Shown piece after piece: positions 1 through 36,870 of a stretch of DNA of 64,000 nt. How positions within the stretch are numbered: the first letter of the stretch is position 1; each line of letters opens with the position of its first letter. The position numbers were made by a program, and so were the translations under genes. Location: the NCBI RefSeq assembly GCF_000178115.2, contig NC_014828.1, positions 62,001 to 126,000 of the forward strand. The letters are read 5' to 3'. The notes beneath the pieces were generated by a model. The model made no database searches and had not been told where the DNA came from. It saw only the letters and a list, made by a program, of their open reading frames with translations. Source of the DNA: Ethanoligenens harbinense YUAN-3 (lineage in GTDB: Bacteria; Bacillota; Clostridia; Oscillospirales; Ethanoligenentaceae).

Positions 1-2
1 GC

Positions 3-515
3 ATGGTGACCAGCATGTTCGGTTCGGCGCTGTCCCATCCCGTCGCGGTGGACGAAGCGGTGGCCACGGTGGCGGGCATGCTGCCGGTGAGCGGCGGCCG
101 GGAACCGGTGTTGCTCACCGTGGCGCAGATGCGCGCGGACGGCGCCGCCTACCTTGCGCGGCTGGCCATGCCGCAGGCGGTCTTCCTGCGGCGTGGGCGG
201 GTGCTGCCGCTCGTTTTCACGCCCCGCCGATGCGGCCCCGTTGTGCTGGAAGAGGCGCGCCTGCAACTCAAGTCCCGCGACACGCTGGTCTGCTTCGGGC
301 ATGGCGTTGCGCGTGCAGGCGAGGGCGTACCCTATGCCGCGGGTTGGGAAAACGTTTTGCTTCCCGCCTATTTGCAGGCGGCCTATACGCCGTCCGTTCC
401 GGCCGGGAAACTGGTGGAGCTGCTGCTCGGCATTAGCTGCTCGCTCTGTGGTGAAAAGCCGCGCAGCGATCTTTCGGCCGCCGTGCTTCGCTACCGTGCC
501 GTGCGGGAGGGATGA
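3..515 (+). CDS. SpoIIE/PPM-like phosphatase-fold protein, 5' partial
   Basis: The reading frame is open to the left edge, so the true start probably lies outside the window. The C-terminal 120 residues resemble the SpoIIE/RsbU serine phosphatase core: RDTLVCFGHGVARAG sits where the family has a GD-LV-SDGV-EA block, and SDLSAAVLRYR sits where the family has DDMT-L-LR. The metal-binding Asp of the SDG motif is His here (GHG), so phosphatase activity is doubtful. The stop codon overlaps or closely precedes the start of the TnpB-like gene, indicating one operon. The family call rests on motif shape only; it could be a degenerate member used for binding rather than catalysis. Confidence 0.5.
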   Translation: MVTSMFGSALSHPVAVDEAVATVAGMLPVSGGREPVLLTVAQMRADGAAYLARLAMPQAVFLRRGRVLPLVFTPRRCGPVVLEEARLQLKSRDTLVCFGHGVARAGEGVPYAAGWENVLLPAYLQAAYTPSVPAGKLVELLLGISCSLCGEKPRSDLSAAVLRYRAVREG

Positions 516-517
516 CG

Positions 518-2056
518 ATGCCCTGCTACAAAACGCTTTCGTTGGAGATCCGTGAGCCTGGGCGGCGGAAACGGGAACTGATGGATACCGCCCTGCTGTC
601 CTATACCCGCGCGTTGGAGCAACTGCTGCGGCAGTGCCGGGAGCCGGTGCAGGCGCTGGCCCGGGGCGGCCGGCGCGTCACGCGTGCGCAGGTGCAGGCG
701 CTGGCGGACAAGGATATGCTGCGTGCACTCAATGTTTACGGTGTGCAGCCCTTCAAGGACTCGCTCAAGCAGGATTTTGCCACTATTTTGCTCAGTTTTG
801 CCGCGCGCTGGCAGAAGTCGGGCGGCCAGGCGGGCTATCCCTGTGTCCGCCTGGAGCCGGAGGAGGCGGATGCGCGGATCCGCGCCCTGACGGACGCTTA
901 CGATGCGGGAATGCTTTCGGCCGCAGAGATGCGCGGGCGGCTGGCGGTTGTGCTTGCGCACAGTGGGCGGGTGCATCCGCTCTATTTCGGGCGGTATGCC
1001 GCCGCGCGGGACTATTGCCTGCTCTATGATCCCGGTACCGGGCGTTTTTTCGCCAAGCTGCACCTGCTCAATGCCAAAAGCCGTTTGCCGCCGGCGCCTT
1101 TCGGGCGCGAACTGCGCGTAGTGGCGCCCGGTCTTCCGTCTGCTCAGGCAACGGACGGCCCCCGGCGGTTCATCGTGGTGCCGCTGTCGTTCGGCAAAGC
1201 GCAGCAGGAGGTGCTGCGGCAGGCTCTGGACCATCCGCAGATTCTCCGCACGGCAAGGCTGGTGCGGCACGGCGACGCATACCGTCTGGTGCTGAGCGTG
1301 GAGGTATCCTGCAATGCGTGCGTGGTGCCGCAGGCGACGATGGGCGTGGCGCGAGCAGCCGCGGCGCTGGCCTGCACGGTGTGCGGCAGGGATGGCGCCG
1401 TGCAGGGAAACGCCATGCTCTCCGCGAGAGGCGGGCAGATGCTGTTCTGCCTGGCGAAGGAGATCACTGCGCGCGCATTGGAGGCACGCGCACAGGTGGT
1501 GCTGGAAGCAAACGGCGGTCGGGGCGACGGCTTTCTCCTGCGGGATGGCGGCCGTTTCCAGCCGGAGGTGTTCCCTGCCGGGCAATATATGCGGCTGGAG
1601 CATATCCTGCGGTATAAACTCGTGGAAGCGGGGCTGCCTCCGCCTGTATGTGTCAGCGGCAGCGGCTTGAACATCACCTGCCCCCGCTGTGGGGCGGTTA
1701 CCCGAAAAAACCGTCTTTCCCCGCAGATGTTCGCCTGTGTTGCCTGTGGATACGCAGCGCCCTTTCCGTTCGTGGGCAGCCGCAACCTTGCCGTCCGGCT
1801 GCAGAAATACGCGGGCAACAAGGTGCCCGTGTATGTGCGGGAGGAAAACGGCATGCGGCACTATTTCAACGACGCGCTGGGTTTTTCCTGCACGGTGCCC
1901 GCCGAGGACGGAGAGACCGTGGTGTTTTACGAGTTGAGCCTGATGGCGAAAGGCCGGCAGGAGGACTGGTGCGAAGGCAAAAAATACGCCATGCTCTGCA
2001 AACTGCGCGCGGCGGAGGATATCCGCAATGCGGTGCGCTGGGTGCCGGTGAAATGA
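518..2056 (+). CDS. TnpB-family protein with inactivated RuvC site (TldR-like candidate)
   Basis: This 512-residue protein has the TnpB layout: an N-terminal region opening KTLSLEI, a beta-rich stretch before RuvC-I, a Glu-bearing RuvC-II strand (VVLEANG, Glu330), then a four-Cys ribbon (Cys388, 391, 407, 410) and a terminal SRNLA in place of the usual AARNI. In TnpB the RuvC-I Asp follows a GI dipeptide; here the strand reads MGVARAAAALA, with Ala278 at that position. The RuvC-III Asp, eight positions into the CG-x5-D-x-NAARN block, is Pro417. Two of three catalytic acids are therefore missing, as in TldR-type RNA-guided repressors derived from TnpB. About 85 residues follow the RuvC-III block, which is unusual. 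No TnpA is nearby. ATG 518 is chosen over ATG 512 because GGGAGG at 505-510 is correctly spaced for it. Confidence 0.72.
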   Translation: MPCYKTLSLEIREPGRRKRELMDTALLSYTRALEQLLRQCREPVQALARGGRRVTRAQVQALADKDMLRALNVYGVQPFKDSLKQDFATILLSFAARWQKSGGQAGYPCVRLEPEEADARIRALTDAYDAGMLSAAEMRGRLAVVLAHSGRVHPLYFGRYAAARDYCLLYDPGTGRFFAKLHLLNAKSRLPPAPFGRELRVVAPGLPSAQATDGPRRFIVVPLSFGKAQQEVLRQALDHPQILRTARLVRHGDAYRLVLSVEVSCNACVVPQATMGVARAAAALACTVCGRDGAVQGNAMLSARGGQMLFCLAKEITARALEARAQVVLEANGGRGDGFLLRDGGRFQPEVFPAGQYMRLEHILRYKLVEAGLPPPVCVSGSGLNITCPRCGAVTRKNRLSPQMFACVACGYAAPFPFVGSRNLAVRLQKYAGNKVPVYVREENGMRHYFNDALGFSCTVPAEDGETVVFYELSLMAKGRQEDWCEGKKYAMLCKLRAAEDIRNAVRWVPVK

Positions 2057-2191
2057 CCACCGATCAAAATGAATCAGGGTGCTTTGGCTGCCGCATCATG
2101 CGGCTGAACACGCGGCGTAGTCCCGTGCCCGGCTGCGATCCCCGCTGAGCGGGCGGGCGTTTCGCCCGAAAAGTGCAGCTATTTATATAAA
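2057..2191 (+). ncRNA. candidate structured 3' RNA (possible guide RNA) of the TnpB-like gene
   Basis: The segment after the TnpB-like stop holds three short hairpins: 2090-2104 (GCCGCA/TGCGGC), 2141-2153 (CCCGC/GCGGG) and 2154-2168 (CGGGCG/CGCCCG). A 23-nt A/T-rich stretch without self-pairing follows (2169-2191), and then a strong terminator. TnpB and TldR families take their guide RNA from the 3' end of the gene, with scaffold first and guide last, so the layout fits. A competing stem (GGCTGC near 2131 with GCAGCT near 2175) would use part of the proposed guide. The RNA identity is inference. Confidence 0.35.
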
Positions 2192-2222
2192 GGGCCGTCC
2201 CCCTTGCGGGGACGGCCCTTTT
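2192..2222 (+). terminator. Rho-independent terminator
   Basis: An 11-bp perfect stem, GGGCCGTCCCC with GGGGACGGCCC, has a 5-nt loop and is followed by TTTT. It ends the SpoIIE-like/TnpB-like transcription unit. Confidence 0.9.
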
Positions 2223-2273
2223 GTGTGGATGGAGGATGTCGAAACAAGTCTTACGGCTTCGGATAATCTGCCT

Positions 2274-2501
2274 TCACTTTTTGGCGAATGGTCTACCGAG
2301 GGGAAAAGGGGCCGCTTGACCATCAAGCACTATTTTTGCACTATCCTTTTGAGAAGGTTCTTCCTCTTTCATGAAATGCAGTTCCGGTTGGTCGGAAGTC
2401 ATGTAAAGCTCTTCGGTCTCTTGTTGGGCTTTTTGCAGAATGTCGATTGCTTTGGTAGTTGCTTAAAACAATTTTCGATACATTTCCCGGTAGTCTGCCA
2501 T
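2274..2501 (-). pseudogene. small clostridial hypothetical protein, interrupted by an ochre stop
   Basis: Read on the minus strand from ATG at 2501, the frame gives MADYREMYRKLF, a TAA at 2465-2463, and then 63 further sense codons (ATTKAIDILQKAQQETEELY...) up to TGA at 2274. The pattern resembles small acidic proteins, often near XRE regulators in Clostridia, that share an A-KAI-IL--AQ--TEELY core (recalled, not searched). The stop could be a single CAA-to-TAA change. It is divergent from the XRE gene. Confidence 0.6.
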
Positions 2502-2539
2502 ATATGAACATCACACCTTCTTTGAGTCTATGAATGTTT

Positions 2540-2581
2540 TAGCGATATATCCGCTAAAATTCAATAGCGGATATTCCGCTA
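2540..2581. promoter_or_regulatory. two palindromic operator sites
   Basis: Site 1 (2540-2556, TAGCGATATATCCGCTA) and site 2 (2565-2581, TAGCGGATATTCCGCTA) share TAGCG...CCGCTA arms; the second is a perfect palindrome around TAT. They lie between the divergent small pseudogene and the XRE gene, the expected place for autoregulation. Confidence 0.7.
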
Positions 2582-2608
2582 TTTTATAATAACCCCGAGG
2601 TGGGCGTG

Positions 2609-2827
2609 ATGTATAAACGAATTAGAGATTTGCGAGAAGACAAAAGCCTTTCACAAACCCGGATGGCGGAAATCCTGCATTGCAGTCAGCGGGTTTACAG
2701 CAATTATGAGCGTGGAGAAGTGGACATACCGACCGGCATTTTAATCAGGCTGGCAGATTTCCACCAGACCAGTACGGATTACCTGCTGGGAAGGACAAGC
2801 GTTTCAAAACCCTATCCAAAAGGGTGA
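2609..2827 (+). CDS. XRE-family helix-turn-helix regulator
   Basis: This 72-residue protein is almost entirely one HTH domain (MYKRIRDLREDKSLSQ, then MAEILHCSQRVYSNYERG and LADFHQTSTDYLLGRT). It is a small DNA-binding repressor of the type that controls its own divergent promoter region. ATG 2609 is preferred over GTG 2600 because GAGG at 2597-2600 has an 8-nt spacing to it. The two palindromes just upstream are its likely operators. Confidence 0.8.
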   Translation: MYKRIRDLREDKSLSQTRMAEILHCSQRVYSNYERGEVDIPTGILIRLADFHQTSTDYLLGRTSVSKPYPKG

Positions 2828-3204
2828 TTCCCTTTATGGGGGCAAGCCATAGATTAAAATCATGCCGATGAATAAAGGAACCGCCACATTTGACAGAAGT
2901 CTTAGTAGCGGTTCCTTAGCGTAATATTGTCTATCCGGCTCCCGTTCGGTTTTGTTACTCCGGATACCACACCGCATCCCTTGAGAAATTTGGAACACTT
3001 TTCTTGCAAGTCCGCAGTATACGGTGTGCTGTTTTTGTGCCATAATGGGGCAAAGGCAAGCGCAAGGCATCGGTTTTCAGGCTGTGCGGTCGTGTTTTTT
3101 AAAAAGCCTTTTTGGACCTAAACGCGGGCCGTGCCCGCCGCCCGTTCAGGCTGAGAAGGCATTTTCCGGCCCGGCTTGCCTGCACTTAAAAAGGGTCCTC
3201 GCCC
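2828..3204. other. intergenic stretch with one inverted repeat
   Basis: I see no convincing gene here. A 10-bp inverted repeat (AAGGAACCGC at 2875-2884 with GCGGTTCCTT at 2908-2917, 23-nt loop) follows the XRE gene. It has no T tract, so it could be an operator or a mobile-element scar rather than a terminator. Confidence 0.4.
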
Positions 3205-4371
3205 CTATTCGTAGCGGAGGGCGTCGATGGGGCGCATTTTGGAAGCCTTGTTGGCGGGATACAGCCCGAAGATCACGCCGACGGAAACGGCGAACGCCAG
3301 CGCGAGAATTGCGACCCCGGGTGTAACGCTCATCGGCACATCCATCACCTTGCCCACGATCGCGGTGCCCACGCCGCCCAGCACCAGCCCGATGACGCCG
3401 CCCGTGAGGGAGATGAGCATGGACTCGATGAGGAACTGCACCAAAATGCTGCCGCGGCCCGCGCCGATGGCCTTGCGGATGCCGATCTCGCGCGTGCGCT
3501 CGGTCACGGAAACCAGCATGATGTTCATGATGCCGATGCCGCCCACCAGCAGCGAGATGCCGGCCAGTGCCCCCAGCATGGCCGTGAGGGTGCCGGTGAT
3601 GGTGTTCAGGGTGGAGAGCAGGTCGCTCTGGCTGAAGATGGTGTAGGCGCTGGTGTCCTTGGTTTTGTGGTACATAAAGGTTTCCAGCGTCTGCACGCCC
3701 TGCTGCACGCTGTCGCCGTCCTTGGCGGTGGCAAACACCTGCAGGATCTGTGTCTGGTGCAGCATACGCTGCGCGGTGGTCACCGGGATGATGATGCGGT
3801 TGTCGTTGGAGCCCATTGCGCTGCTGCCCTTGTGGGTGAGTACCCCCACGATGTCGAACGAGCGTCCCGCCACCTGCACGGTCTGTCCCACCACATTGCG
3901 GCCGCCGAAAAGCGTGTCCGCCACGTCGGTGCCGATCACGGCCACGGAGCTGCGGTTGTCCACGTCCGCCTGGATCAGGAAACGCCCGCTCTGCACCGAA
4001 AGGTCGCGGATGGCGTCATAGCCCGGCGTGGTGCCCTCGATGGAGGTGTTGATAGTGCGGGTGCCGGATTTGGCCACATACTGGGTGGATACCAGCGGCG
4101 CCACCAGCGAAAGCCCGCCGGTGTCCTGCAGGTTTTCCACGTCGTTCAAAGATATGTACACCGGCTTCTGGCCGGTGACGGCGGCTGTGAGCAGGTTTGC
4201 GCCCAGCCCCTGTATTTGCCCGGTGATCTGCGCGGTCGCGCCCTGCCCGATGGAGACCAGCATGGTCACGGCCAGCACGCCGATGATGATGCCCAGCATG
4301 GTGAGAAACGACCGCATTTTATTGGAAAAGACCGAAAGCCATGCCATGCGCATTGCCTGTGAAAAATTCAT
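3205..4371 (-). CDS. MacB/FtsX-type ABC transporter permease
   Basis: This 388-residue membrane protein has one N-terminal membrane segment (about residues 18-42), a long extracytoplasmic MacB-PCD-type region, and three C-terminal membrane segments from about residue 270. That is the typical layout of MacB-class permeases, which couple ATP hydrolysis to movement of an external domain instead of transporting through the bilayer. The conserved [14 protein letters not shown] block lies in the cytoplasmic loop between the second and third segments. The start overlaps the ATPase stop by 4 nt (translational coupling). The substrate is not predictable; antimicrobial peptide or drug efflux is usual. 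Confidence 0.92.
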
Positions 4372-5054
4372 GCGGCACCTCCGTTTCGGTCGTCCGAAGT
4401 AATCAGCCCGTCGGCGATGCGCACGCGGCGCGTGGCCTCCGCGGCCACCTTGGAATCGTGCGTGATGAGCACGATGGTGTTGCCGCTCTCATGCAGTTGG
4501 TGCAGGATGGTCATCACTTCCGCGCCGGATTTGGAGTCGAGGTTGCCGGTCGGCTCGTCGGCCAAAATGATGGAGGGTTTTGCCGCAAACGCGCGGGCGA
4601 TGGCCACACGCTGCTGCTGCCCGCCGCTAAGCTCCTTGGGTTTGTGGTGGATGCGTTCGCCCAGTCCTACGCGTTCAAGCGATTCCATCGCCCGCCGTCG
4701 CCGTTCCTTGGCGGGCACGCCCTGATAGATCATCGGCAGCTCCACATTCTCCAGCGCGGTGAGTTTTTGCAGCAGGTTGAACTGCTGGAAGATGAATCCG
4801 ATCTTGCGGCTGCGGATGCGGCTGAGGTTCTTTTCGCTCACCTTGGTCATGTCCGTGCCGTCGAGGAAATAGTCGCCCTCGTCGGGGGTGTCCAGGCAGC
4901 CGAGGATATTCATCAGCGTGGATTTACCGCTGCCGGAGGGGCCAATGATGGCGGTAAACTCTCCGTCGGCAATGGAGATCGACACGCCGCCCAGCGCGGC
5001 CACCTCGTTGTCTCCCATCTTATAGACTTTTTTGACGTTTTTCAGTTCGATCAA
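4368..5054 (-). CDS. MacB/LolD-type ABC transporter ATPase
   Basis: This 228-residue ATPase has Walker [11 protein letters not shown]-loop QQFNLL, signature [14 protein letters not shown], Walker [13 protein letters not shown] and a switch His in LITHDSK. The TGNLDS sequence is typical of the LolD/MacB subfamily. The start is apparently TTG (5054), overlapping the upstream TGA. It is the energy unit for the downstream permease and upstream adaptor. Confidence 0.95.
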
Positions 5055-6019
5055 GACGCCTTCCCCCCCGAAGCGGTCGAGGACGCGCCGGATGCGGCCG
5101 CGCCCGAGGAGGAACTGCTGTCACTGCTGTTTCGGTTAAGCCCGTTGATGCTGGTGCCGTTGGTGGGCGCCAGGCTGGGCAGCACCACGGTGTCTCCTTC
5201 GTTCACGCCGGAGGTGATCTCGGCCTGCGTGTCGCTGATGAGTCCCACGGAGACTTTCACCTGTGTGTCTTTGGTCGTTTTGCCGGATGTGGTGCGCACG
5301 GTGAGGTAGCGGTCCGCGCCTTTGGTCTGGAGCGCTTCCACCGGCACCAGCAGTGCGTTCTGGTTTTCACCGGTATGGATATCGGCGCTGGCGCTCATGT
5401 TGGACATCAATCCGGTGGAATCGTCCATGCTGAGGGTCACGCTGAAGTCGGTGACGCCGTTTGTGGCCACGCCCACCTGCGAAATTTTCTGCACGGTGCC
5501 TGAAAAGAGCTTGCCGGAGATCGCGTCCACGCTCACATCGGCTTTCTGGCCGGCTTTCACGCCCGCGATGTCCAGTTCGTCCACGTTGACCACCGCATTG
5601 AAGCTGGCCGCGCTCTGCACCTGACAGACCGTCATCCCCGGCTGCACCGGCGTGCCAACCGTAAGCTGGGAAAGCGCCACCACGCCGTCCATGGGGGCGG
5701 TGATGTCGGTCGTGGCGCCGGTACCGGTGGCCGTCACCTCCGCGATGTTGTCGCCGTCATTCACGGGGTCGCCATTCTGCTTGAAGATCTGCGTGACCTT
5801 GCCGGTGACGGTGCTGCTCACCGCCTGCACCGAGGTGGGCTGGATGGTGCCGGTGCCGTGCACGGTCACGGAGATGGCGCCGCGGGTCACTTTTGCCGTA
5901 CGCGTCTGGGTGGAGGTGCTGGCCTTGCGGATGCCGCAGCCGCCGAGGGCGGCCGCCATCGCCGCGCAGGCAAGCAGGATCGCGGCGATGCGCAGGCGGT
6001 GGATGTTCTGTTTTTTCAT
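5051..6019 (-). CDS. RND/HlyD-type adaptor (membrane fusion) lipoprotein-like protein
   Basis: This 322-residue protein starts at ATG 6019, preceded by GGAG at the right distance (the upstream TTG 6025 is less likely). An N-terminal hydrophobic segment ends in GGCGIRK, so it may be lipid-anchored. It is followed by barrel-sandwich (biotinyl-lipoyl-like) halves around PMDGVVALSQLTVGTPVQPG and a beta-barrel region. The C-terminus is Ser/Ala/Gly-rich low complexity. It is the first gene of the adaptor-ATPase-permease operon, and all junctions overlap by 4 nt. Confidence 0.88.
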   Translation of the reverse strand: MKKQNIHRLRIAAILLACAAMAAALGGCGIRKASTSTQTRTAKVTRGAISVTVHGTGTIQPTSVQAVSSTVTGKVTQIFKQNGDPVNDGDNIAEVTATGTGATTDITAPMDGVVALSQLTVGTPVQPGMTVCQVQSAASFNAVVNVDELDIAGVKAGQKADVSVDAISGKLFSGTVQKISQVGVATNGVTDFSVTLSMDDSTGLMSNMSASADIHTGENQNALLVPVEALQTKGADRYLTVRTTSGKTTKDTQVKVSVGLISDTQAEITSGVNEGDTVVLPSLAPTNGTSINGLNRNSSDSSSSSGAAASGASSTASGGKAS

Positions 6020-23459: not shown

Positions 23460-23553
23460 GAAGCCGAAACGGGGCTGCGGCCCCGTCCGCTGGGGATGGC
23501 CTCCCCGCGCTGATGATGGCAGGCCAACCGAAAAGAGGTGATGCAACACGGAA

Positions 23554-31690: not shown

Positions 31691-31903
31691 TCCGGATGCC
31701 CGGGGCGGTTGATTCGTCCCAAACCGGGTGCCGGAGGTGAGATGGACCAAGAGAACCGGGGCTTTTGAAAGCCGCGGGATGGCGAAGCCTGCCTATGCCT
31801 TTTAAAAGGTTTTTAACGGCTTTTAATTCGCGCGCGGAGAACTTGCCCGTCACATTTTGCCCCTGTGCCCCAGCGCGGCGCACAGGGGCTTTGAGCGCGT
31901 GCT
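31691..31903 (+). promoter_or_regulatory. structured leader before the terminase: candidate antiterminator target
   Basis: Right after the NusG-like stop a long hairpin (31691-31703 TCCGGATGCCCGG with CCGGGTGCCGGA near 31724-31735) encloses a second small stem (GGGCG/CGTCC). A broad hairpin closing AAAGCCG/CGGCTTTTAA (about 31767-31827) and a 9-bp stem CCCCTGTGC/GCACAGGGG (31860-31888) followed by CTTTG resemble terminators. This layout, recognition hairpin then terminators, is what LoaP-type control requires. Confidence 0.55.
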
Positions 31904-36765: not shown

Positions 36766-36870
36766 CCGCTCGACCGGCCCGAAGTCGTAAAACTACGGGG
36801 CCGCAGCCGATGCAACCGGCGTAAAAAAGCGTAGCGGTGAACGCACACACCGCAGCCGAAAGGAGCCTGT

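What the first reader, a model, noticed from the sequence alone, without database searches (positions are those of the whole stretch)
2057..2191. Possible guide RNA with an A/T-rich 3' segment
Three small hairpins follow the TnpB-like gene, then about 23 unpaired nucleotides (2169-2191) and a strong terminator. TnpB-type guide RNAs have scaffold then guide at the 3' end. The candidate guide GTGCAGCTATTTATATAAAG contains promoter-like A/T-rich sequence, which would suit targeting of a promoter.
Basis: inference. Interest (0 to 1): 0.55.

Follow-up and report, generated by a model that had tools for sequence, protein, structure and literature searches.

The report
Guide RNA in hydrogen-sensor operon
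Behind a hydrogen-sensor-like gene this bacterium keeps a TnpB-like protein that has lost DNA-cutting residues, together with a conserved RNA carrying a very short guide, which points to an RNA-guided gene regulator rather than a transposon leftover; which gene it controls is not yet known.

Summary
The segment is most likely a guide RNA. It directly follows a 514-aa Cas12f/TnpB homologue (512-2056) whose RuvC-I and RuvC-III aspartates are gone. Four genomes carry protein and RNA. Between the window and same-genus G001, 24 RNA bases in a row are identical (2168-2191), although third codon positions in the gene's last 200 codons are 28% identical. The last six scaffold bases (2175-2180) pair with the loop of a first hairpin (2078-2097); two TnpBs with intact RuvC-I and RuvC-III aspartates have the same arrangement, and their sequences diverge right after it. 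This puts the guide at 2181-2191 (ATTTATATAAA), shorter than proposed. In the three loci with readable upstream DNA, the gene follows an [FeFe]-hydrogenase-like gene and a degenerate SpoIIE-like gene. I read this as a TldR-like RNA-guided regulator attached to a hydrogen sensor. The target is unresolved: the only other 11-nt match in the window genome is upstream of nifH; in G096 one of at least three 9-nt matches is in the hydABC promoter; G001 and G273 show no counterpart, and match counts in the window genome do not exceed controls.

The parts
1..515 (+). Degenerate SpoIIE/PP2C-like protein (224-aa ORF at L003:13842-14516, starting 160 bases before the window); overlaps the TnpB-like gene by 4 bases
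   Evidence: no Pfam match; 58 of 210 positions (28%) identical to an ordinary SpoIIE partner of another sensor hydrogenase (that protein: SpoIIE E 8.7e-20); profile comparison 98.8%; TDGV motif reads GHGV
512..2056 (+). Nuclease-dead TnpB/Cas12f homologue, 514 aa, zinc ribbon kept, about 80-aa extra C-terminal region
   Evidence: homology; RuvC-I Asp->Thr, RuvC-III Asp->Pro:
2057..2180 (+). Guide-RNA scaffold
   Evidence: aligned in 4 genomes
2078..2097 (+). Hairpin H1 (arms 2078-2082 and 2093-2097); its loop holds the pairing strand 2086-2091
   Evidence: 5 of 5 arm pairs in window, G001, G096 and in the TnpB RNAs of L085 and L086; 4 of 5 in G273
2175..2180 (+). Last six scaffold bases GCAGCT, pairing with 2086-2091
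   Evidence: 24 of 24 cells paired in 4 sequences; closing pair G-U/A-U/C-G/G-U
2181..2191 (+). Guide ATTTATATAAA (ATTAAATAA in G096 and G273)
   Evidence: boundary from the pairing and from divergence of L085 and L086 right after the same strand; identical in G001
2189..2223 (+). Terminator-like hairpin with T run that bounds the guide
   Evidence: z -5.83

Best explanation
The window carries a domesticated, nuclease-dead TnpB homologue with its own guide RNA, working like a TldR: protein plus RNA bind DNA that matches the AT-rich guide of about 11 nt next to a short motif, and change transcription there instead of cutting. Its operon starts with a PAS-containing [FeFe]-hydrogenase of the kind proposed to sense hydrogen, followed by a phosphatase-like protein that has lost a conserved aspartate motif. 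I infer that sensor, pseudo-phosphatase and RNA-guided protein form one pathway that adjusts hydrogen or redox genes. Shown by sequence: homology, loss of two catalytic aspartates, conserved RNA and guide boundary, conserved gene order. Inferred: RNA-protein assembly, DNA binding, regulation, hydrogen as the signal. Candidate targets only: nifH upstream region (window genome), hydABC promoter (G096).
For: Cas12f/TnpB homology. RuvC-I Asp->Thr in 3 of 3 aligned members; RuvC-III Asp -> Pro, Gln, Glu, Arg in G001 by the alignment. One match in the own genome. RNA aligned in 4 of 4 members; hairpin H1 and pairing strand shared with two TnpB RNAs. 24-base identical run window/G001 while pS is 0.93 and pN 0.29. 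Order hydrogenase-like, SpoIIE-like, TnpB-like in 3 of 3 members with readable upstream DNA. The one other 11-mer match in the window genome lies upstream of nifH; both GTATTAAATA sites of G096 lie in the hydABC promoter.
Against: No target is shared by members. G001 (62% complete) has 8 other exact 11-mer sites, none seen by eye beside hydrogenase or nif genes. In G096 the 9-nt ATTAAATAA also occurs at C6:81765 and C15:33533, away from hydABC, and sites preceded by A or C were not searched. G273 has four ATTAAATAA sites outside the RNA in the searched set, none seen beside hydrogenase genes, no GTATTAAATA, and lacks a counterpart of the G096 C13 hydrogenase. Match counts: window genome 20 against control 20, G001 36 against 28; searches are at or below control except G273 (30 against 28). 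Both candidate sites are perfect inverted repeats, which a protein repressor could also explain. The window's own hydABC, hydA and hydS promoters match only 7, 5 and 6 bases. G001's gene has two in-frame stops.
Confidence: 0.6

Rival explanations
1. The RNA and the dead TnpB form a particle, but the conserved AT-rich tail is not a DNA guide; it is a structural or protein-binding tail, or pairs with an mRNA.
For: The tail is conserved across two families (ATTTATATAAA / ATTAAATAA) while no common DNA target was found.
Against: It sits where the two TnpB RNAs carry their guide. TldR guides as short as 6 nt are reported to suffice (PMC13418256, passage seen), so a missed target is plausible.
Confidence: 0.22
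2. A decaying TnpB relic without function.
For: Catalytic residues lost; in-frame TAG and TAA in G001.
Against: pN 0.29 against pS 0.93 over 200 codons; 24-base identical run; same operon place in two families.
Confidence: 0.1
3. An active TnpB homing nuclease with an unusual active site.
For: RuvC-II Glu kept in window, G001 and G096 (LEAN, LESN, VENT).
Against: RuvC-I and RuvC-III Asp lost; one match in the genome; chromosomal operon context.
Confidence: 0.03
4. Only a 3' untranslated region with a terminator; hairpins by chance.
For: The fold of 2057-2191 alone is not unusual.
Against: Conserved pairing and the identical 24-mer.
Confidence: 0.03

Closest known systems
TldR (TnpB-like nuclease-dead repressors), including csrA-associated TldRs of Oscillibacter
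   Same: TnpB-family protein with inactivated RuvC, associated guide RNA, stable non-transposon gene partners (PMC13418256, passages seen). My searches also returned such loci: L087 with hin-, csrA- and fliC-like genes and L089 with csrA- and fliC-like genes; gene names given by me from the translations.
   Different: Partner genes are an [FeFe]-hydrogenase-like sensor and a degenerate phosphatase, not flagellin or csrA; about 9-14 nt lie between scaffold and terminator stem; extra C-terminal region; separate clade in a 10-protein tree; target not identified.
TnpB of L085 and L086 (G341, G305)
   Same: Best non-member protein hits (E 8.5e-8 and 9.9e-8); same hairpin and same pairing of its loop with the last scaffold bases
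   Different: RuvC-I and RuvC-III aspartates intact; the sequence after the scaffold differs between the two loci; their gene neighbours were not examined.
Group C sensory [FeFe]-hydrogenase operon (HydS plus Ser/Thr phosphatase)
   Same: Hydrogenase-like, PAS and phosphatase-like genes together; described for Ruminococcus albus in PMC6776011 (passages); an ordinary version is in L126
   Different: The phosphatase is degenerate and the operon continues into a dead TnpB with guide RNA.
Cas12f (AsCas12f, OsCas12f)
   Same: Closest solved structures
   Different: No CRISPR-like array in L003:8000-16301 or window 1-6000; two catalytic aspartates lost.

Membership tests
TldR | TnpB-family protein | tested here: met
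   (structure model of low confidence: pLDDT 58; Pfam match below its cut-off)
TldR | RuvC active site inactivated | tested here: met
   RuvC-I and III Asp lost; RuvC-II Glu kept in 3 of 4 by the alignment
TldR | Adjacent guide RNA with TnpB-type scaffold and 3' guide | tested here: met
   sequence evidence only, no RNA data
TldR | Fixed beside non-transposon genes | tested here: met
   one match in own genome; same gene order in 3 of 3 readable members; no dedicated search for tnpA or transposon ends was made
TldR | Guide matches a chromosomal target next to a TAM | tested here: inconclusive
   nifH and hydABC candidates, no common target, counts near controls, TAM unknown
TldR | Changes transcription by RNA-guided DNA binding | not testable with these tools
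   needs an experiment
Active IS200/IS605 TnpB | Intact RuvC catalytic triad | tested here: not met
Type V-F CRISPR (Cas12f) | CRISPR array beside the gene | tested here: not met
   only two-copy direct repeats in L003:8000-16301 and window 1-6000; the rest of the genome was not examined
Group C sensory [FeFe]-hydrogenase operon | H-cluster domain plus PAS plus phosphatase-like gene | tested here: met
   window genome: Fe_hyd_lg_C and PAS_8; phosphatase-like gene present but degenerate
Group C sensory [FeFe]-hydrogenase operon | Senses H2 | not testable with these tools
   proposed, not proven, in the passages seen

The most novel reading that the evidence does not exclude
A hydrogen-sensing operon whose output is an RNA-guided transcription factor: the sensor hydrogenase signals through a dead phosphatase to a dead TnpB, and a very short guide kept by selection across families steers it to promoters of hydrogen-producing enzymes such as hydABC or nitrogenase, possibly as a paired complex on the inverted repeats found there.
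Probability: 0.27. Interest if true: 0.88.

Novelty: new variant of a known kind. Interest (0 to 1): 0.7.

Why it matters
How putative sensory [FeFe]-hydrogenases pass their signal to gene expression is open; PMC6776011 suggests that the phosphatase may modify downstream regulators (passage seen). A dead TnpB with its guide RNA in the same operon is a concrete, testable output. It would also take TldR-like regulation beyond the flagellar cases described in the passages I saw, with an unusually short guide kept across families.

Tried and rejected
Rfam: no family fits the RNA. In permissive mode 17 matches (E up to 10) fell in window 1900-2300, none at its gathering score; none at E <= 1 in L011, L012, L004, L013, L014.

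Guide starting at 2174: the 18-mer with up to 3 mismatches found itself plus 2 three-mismatch sites in G000 (control 3) and itself plus 1 in G001 (control 2). GCAGCKATTWA occurred once in each of 4 genomes, the RNA itself (controls 3, 2, 1, 1), which led me to treat GCAGC as scaffold. I first read the RuvC-I Asp as replaced by Ala/Gly (note); the alignment with TnpBs shows Thr. The RuvC-II column was misaligned.

Hydrogenase-linked promoters as common target: of 10 regions tested, eight matched only 3-7 leading bases (best of these: window hydABC, 7 bases, 115 of 2000 shuffles as good). G096 hydABC (10 bases, 6 of 2000) and window nifH (13 bases, 1 of 2000) stood out, but they were chosen because they held a match, so these are not independent tests; and one search used the guide with base 2180 included, before the boundary was revised.

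With that same older boundary, G096 TATTAAAT has 17 non-self sites, two in the hydABC promoter, and G273 GATTAAAT has 6 non-self sites, none seen beside hydrogenase genes. Under the revised boundary both first letters count; of the 23 TATTAAAT sites of G273 only the three that extend to ATTAAATAA were looked at. Eight GTATTTATA sites lie in the window genome: two upstream of nifH, the other six beside or inside other genes, none recognised by eye as hydrogenase or nif. Gene names at all these sites were judged by eye from translations.

C-terminal region: the whole-protein model matched an antitoxin chain (3k6q_B, Z 9.8, rmsd 2.2 over 80 residues), but the region folded alone was poor (pLDDT 46), so I draw nothing from it. 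Covariation of the six-pair helix with four sequences is weak on its own (121 of 500 shuffles as good). The tree does not resolve which TnpB clade the family came from.

Genome-contig searches gave 0 relatives with the protein and 1, the G001 contig, with an alignment.

On re-checking I added that the 9-nt guide of G096 has further sites outside hydABC and that G001's near-match count is above its control; for the first I lowered the novel case from 0.30 to 0.27 and raised the first rival from 0.20 to 0.22.

Full report
What is there. The window is bases 62001-126000 of a 3,008,576-base single-contig genome (this is the size I recall for Ethanoligenens harbinense, confirmed by no call). ORF 512-2056 encodes 514 aa. 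Sequence searches give a weak Cas12f1-like match (Pfam E 7.7e-4, below its cut-off), AsCas12f chains (E 1.5e-4; names) and, with a 4-sequence profile, Cas12f at E 8.7e-9. A structure model of low confidence (pLDDT 58) still finds AsCas12f first (E 3.4e-9 with TM-score 0.21; best Z 12.1, rmsd 13.8 over 203 residues).

The protein is nuclease-dead. Aligned with seven TnpB-like proteins from the same order, the RuvC-I aspartate is Thr in the window, G273 and G096, and the RuvC-III aspartate is Pro, Gln and Glu; in G001 the RuvC-III position reads Arg by the alignment. The RuvC-II column was misaligned; the glutamate is kept in window, G001 and G096 and is Ala in G273. The zinc-ribbon cysteines are invariant. 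Three of the seven comparison proteins (L087-L089) also have Thr at RuvC-I; L087 and L089 sit in csrA/fliC loci like those published.

Family. Matches were found in 2 of 59 near genomes (the window's own and G001) and 6 of 394 genomes of the order, of which four are members (window genome, G001, G096, G273) and two are weak ordinary TnpB hits. In the family of G273, 7 of 87 genomes matched: two members and five other TnpB-like proteins. G001's gene lies on a 5,958-base contig like that of MAG UBA11209, DOXU01000145.1; it is cut by the contig end and holds a TAG and a TAA.

The RNA. In all four members a similar RNA follows the gene. Between window and G001, 117 of 204 aligned columns agree, with one run of 24 identical bases covering the end of the scaffold and the whole guide; 0 of 20,000 shuffles reach it. 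In 200 aligned codons of the gene's end, third positions agree at 28%, pS is 0.93 and pN 0.29, so this identity is not recent ancestry.

Guide boundary. A consensus fold puts a long-range helix between GGCTGC (2086-2091) and GCAGCT (2175-2180). All 24 cells pair, and the closing pair is G-U, A-U, C-G and G-U in window, G001, G273 and G096; with four sequences this alone is weak (121 of 500 shuffles). The independent support is: the first strand lies in the loop of hairpin H1 in all four members, and the RNAs of two TnpBs with intact RuvC-I and RuvC-III aspartates, L085 and L086, have the same arrangement with different letters, their sequences diverging right after the second strand. I located these arms by eye and the script checked the pairs. 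The guide therefore starts at 2181: ATTTATATAAA in window and G001, ATTAAATAA in both G096 and G273, followed by the terminator stem.

Neighbourhood. Upstream in the window genome lie a hydrogenase-like gene with PAS domain (Fe_hyd_lg_C E 4e-40, PAS_8 5.3e-6) and an ORF without Pfam match that is 28% identical over 210 positions to an ordinary SpoIIE partner of another sensor hydrogenase (profile 98.8%). G096 and G273 have the same order (PAS scanned in G096 only), followed by an NfnA-like gene (Pfam in G096; G273 by sequence likeness). In G096 a hydABC-type operon lies directly upstream. PMC6776011 (passages) describes such a sensor in R. albus and proposes that its phosphatase modifies downstream regulators.

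Targets. In the window genome, ATTTATATAAA occurs once outside the RNA (the list is complete for this genome): 2481717-2481728 (-), just upstream of nifH, inside a perfect inverted repeat. In G096, GTATTAAATA occurs twice, both in the hydABC promoter, again in a perfect inverted repeat. Against this: near-match counts are 20 against control 20 in the window genome and 36 against 28 in G001; the 9-nt guide of G096 has at least two further sites; G001's 8 other exact sites are not seen beside hydrogenase or nif genes; G273 has no GTATTAAATA, and its four known ATTAAATAA sites and six GATTAAAT sites, one of them shared, are not seen beside hydrogenase genes. A target is not established. PMC13418256 reports that 6-nt guides can suffice for a TldR (passage), so exact-match searches may miss real sites.

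What is known. PMC13418256 (passages) covers fliC- and csrA-linked TldRs. Judged from search listings, no paper on a TnpB-like protein in a hydrogenase operon appeared; the library holds only open-licence papers, and the paper I recall as the original TldR report is not held, so earlier mention cannot be excluded.

Verdict. A TldR-like, nuclease-dead TnpB with a very short guide in a hydrogen-sensor operon: RNA and domestication are well supported by sequence; function and target are inferred.

Noticed in passing
window 23462-23528, 31703-31788, 36771-36833: Rfam matches above cut-off on the + strand: Hammerhead_II, RAGATH-28 and GP20-b RNAs; perhaps a prophage region.
   Followed up: no
window 2224-3204: Nearly 1 kb, with an RstR-like HTH gene (2600-2827), lies between the terminator and a MacB-type permease gene; G001 has only about 20 bases there.
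   Followed up: partly
L004 2110-2124 (G001:C197): In-frame TAG and TAA in the G001 copy, between the RuvC I and II regions, followed by an uninterrupted 203-aa frame.
   Followed up: partly
L087, L089: Loci with csrA-like and fliC-like genes beside a TnpB-like protein with RuvC-I Thr, matching the published csrA-TldR description; L087 also has a hin-like recombinase.
   Followed up: partly
window 1784-2053: C-terminal region of about 80 aa beyond the zinc ribbon; structural hit to antitoxin chain 3k6q_B in the whole-protein model only.
   Followed up: partly
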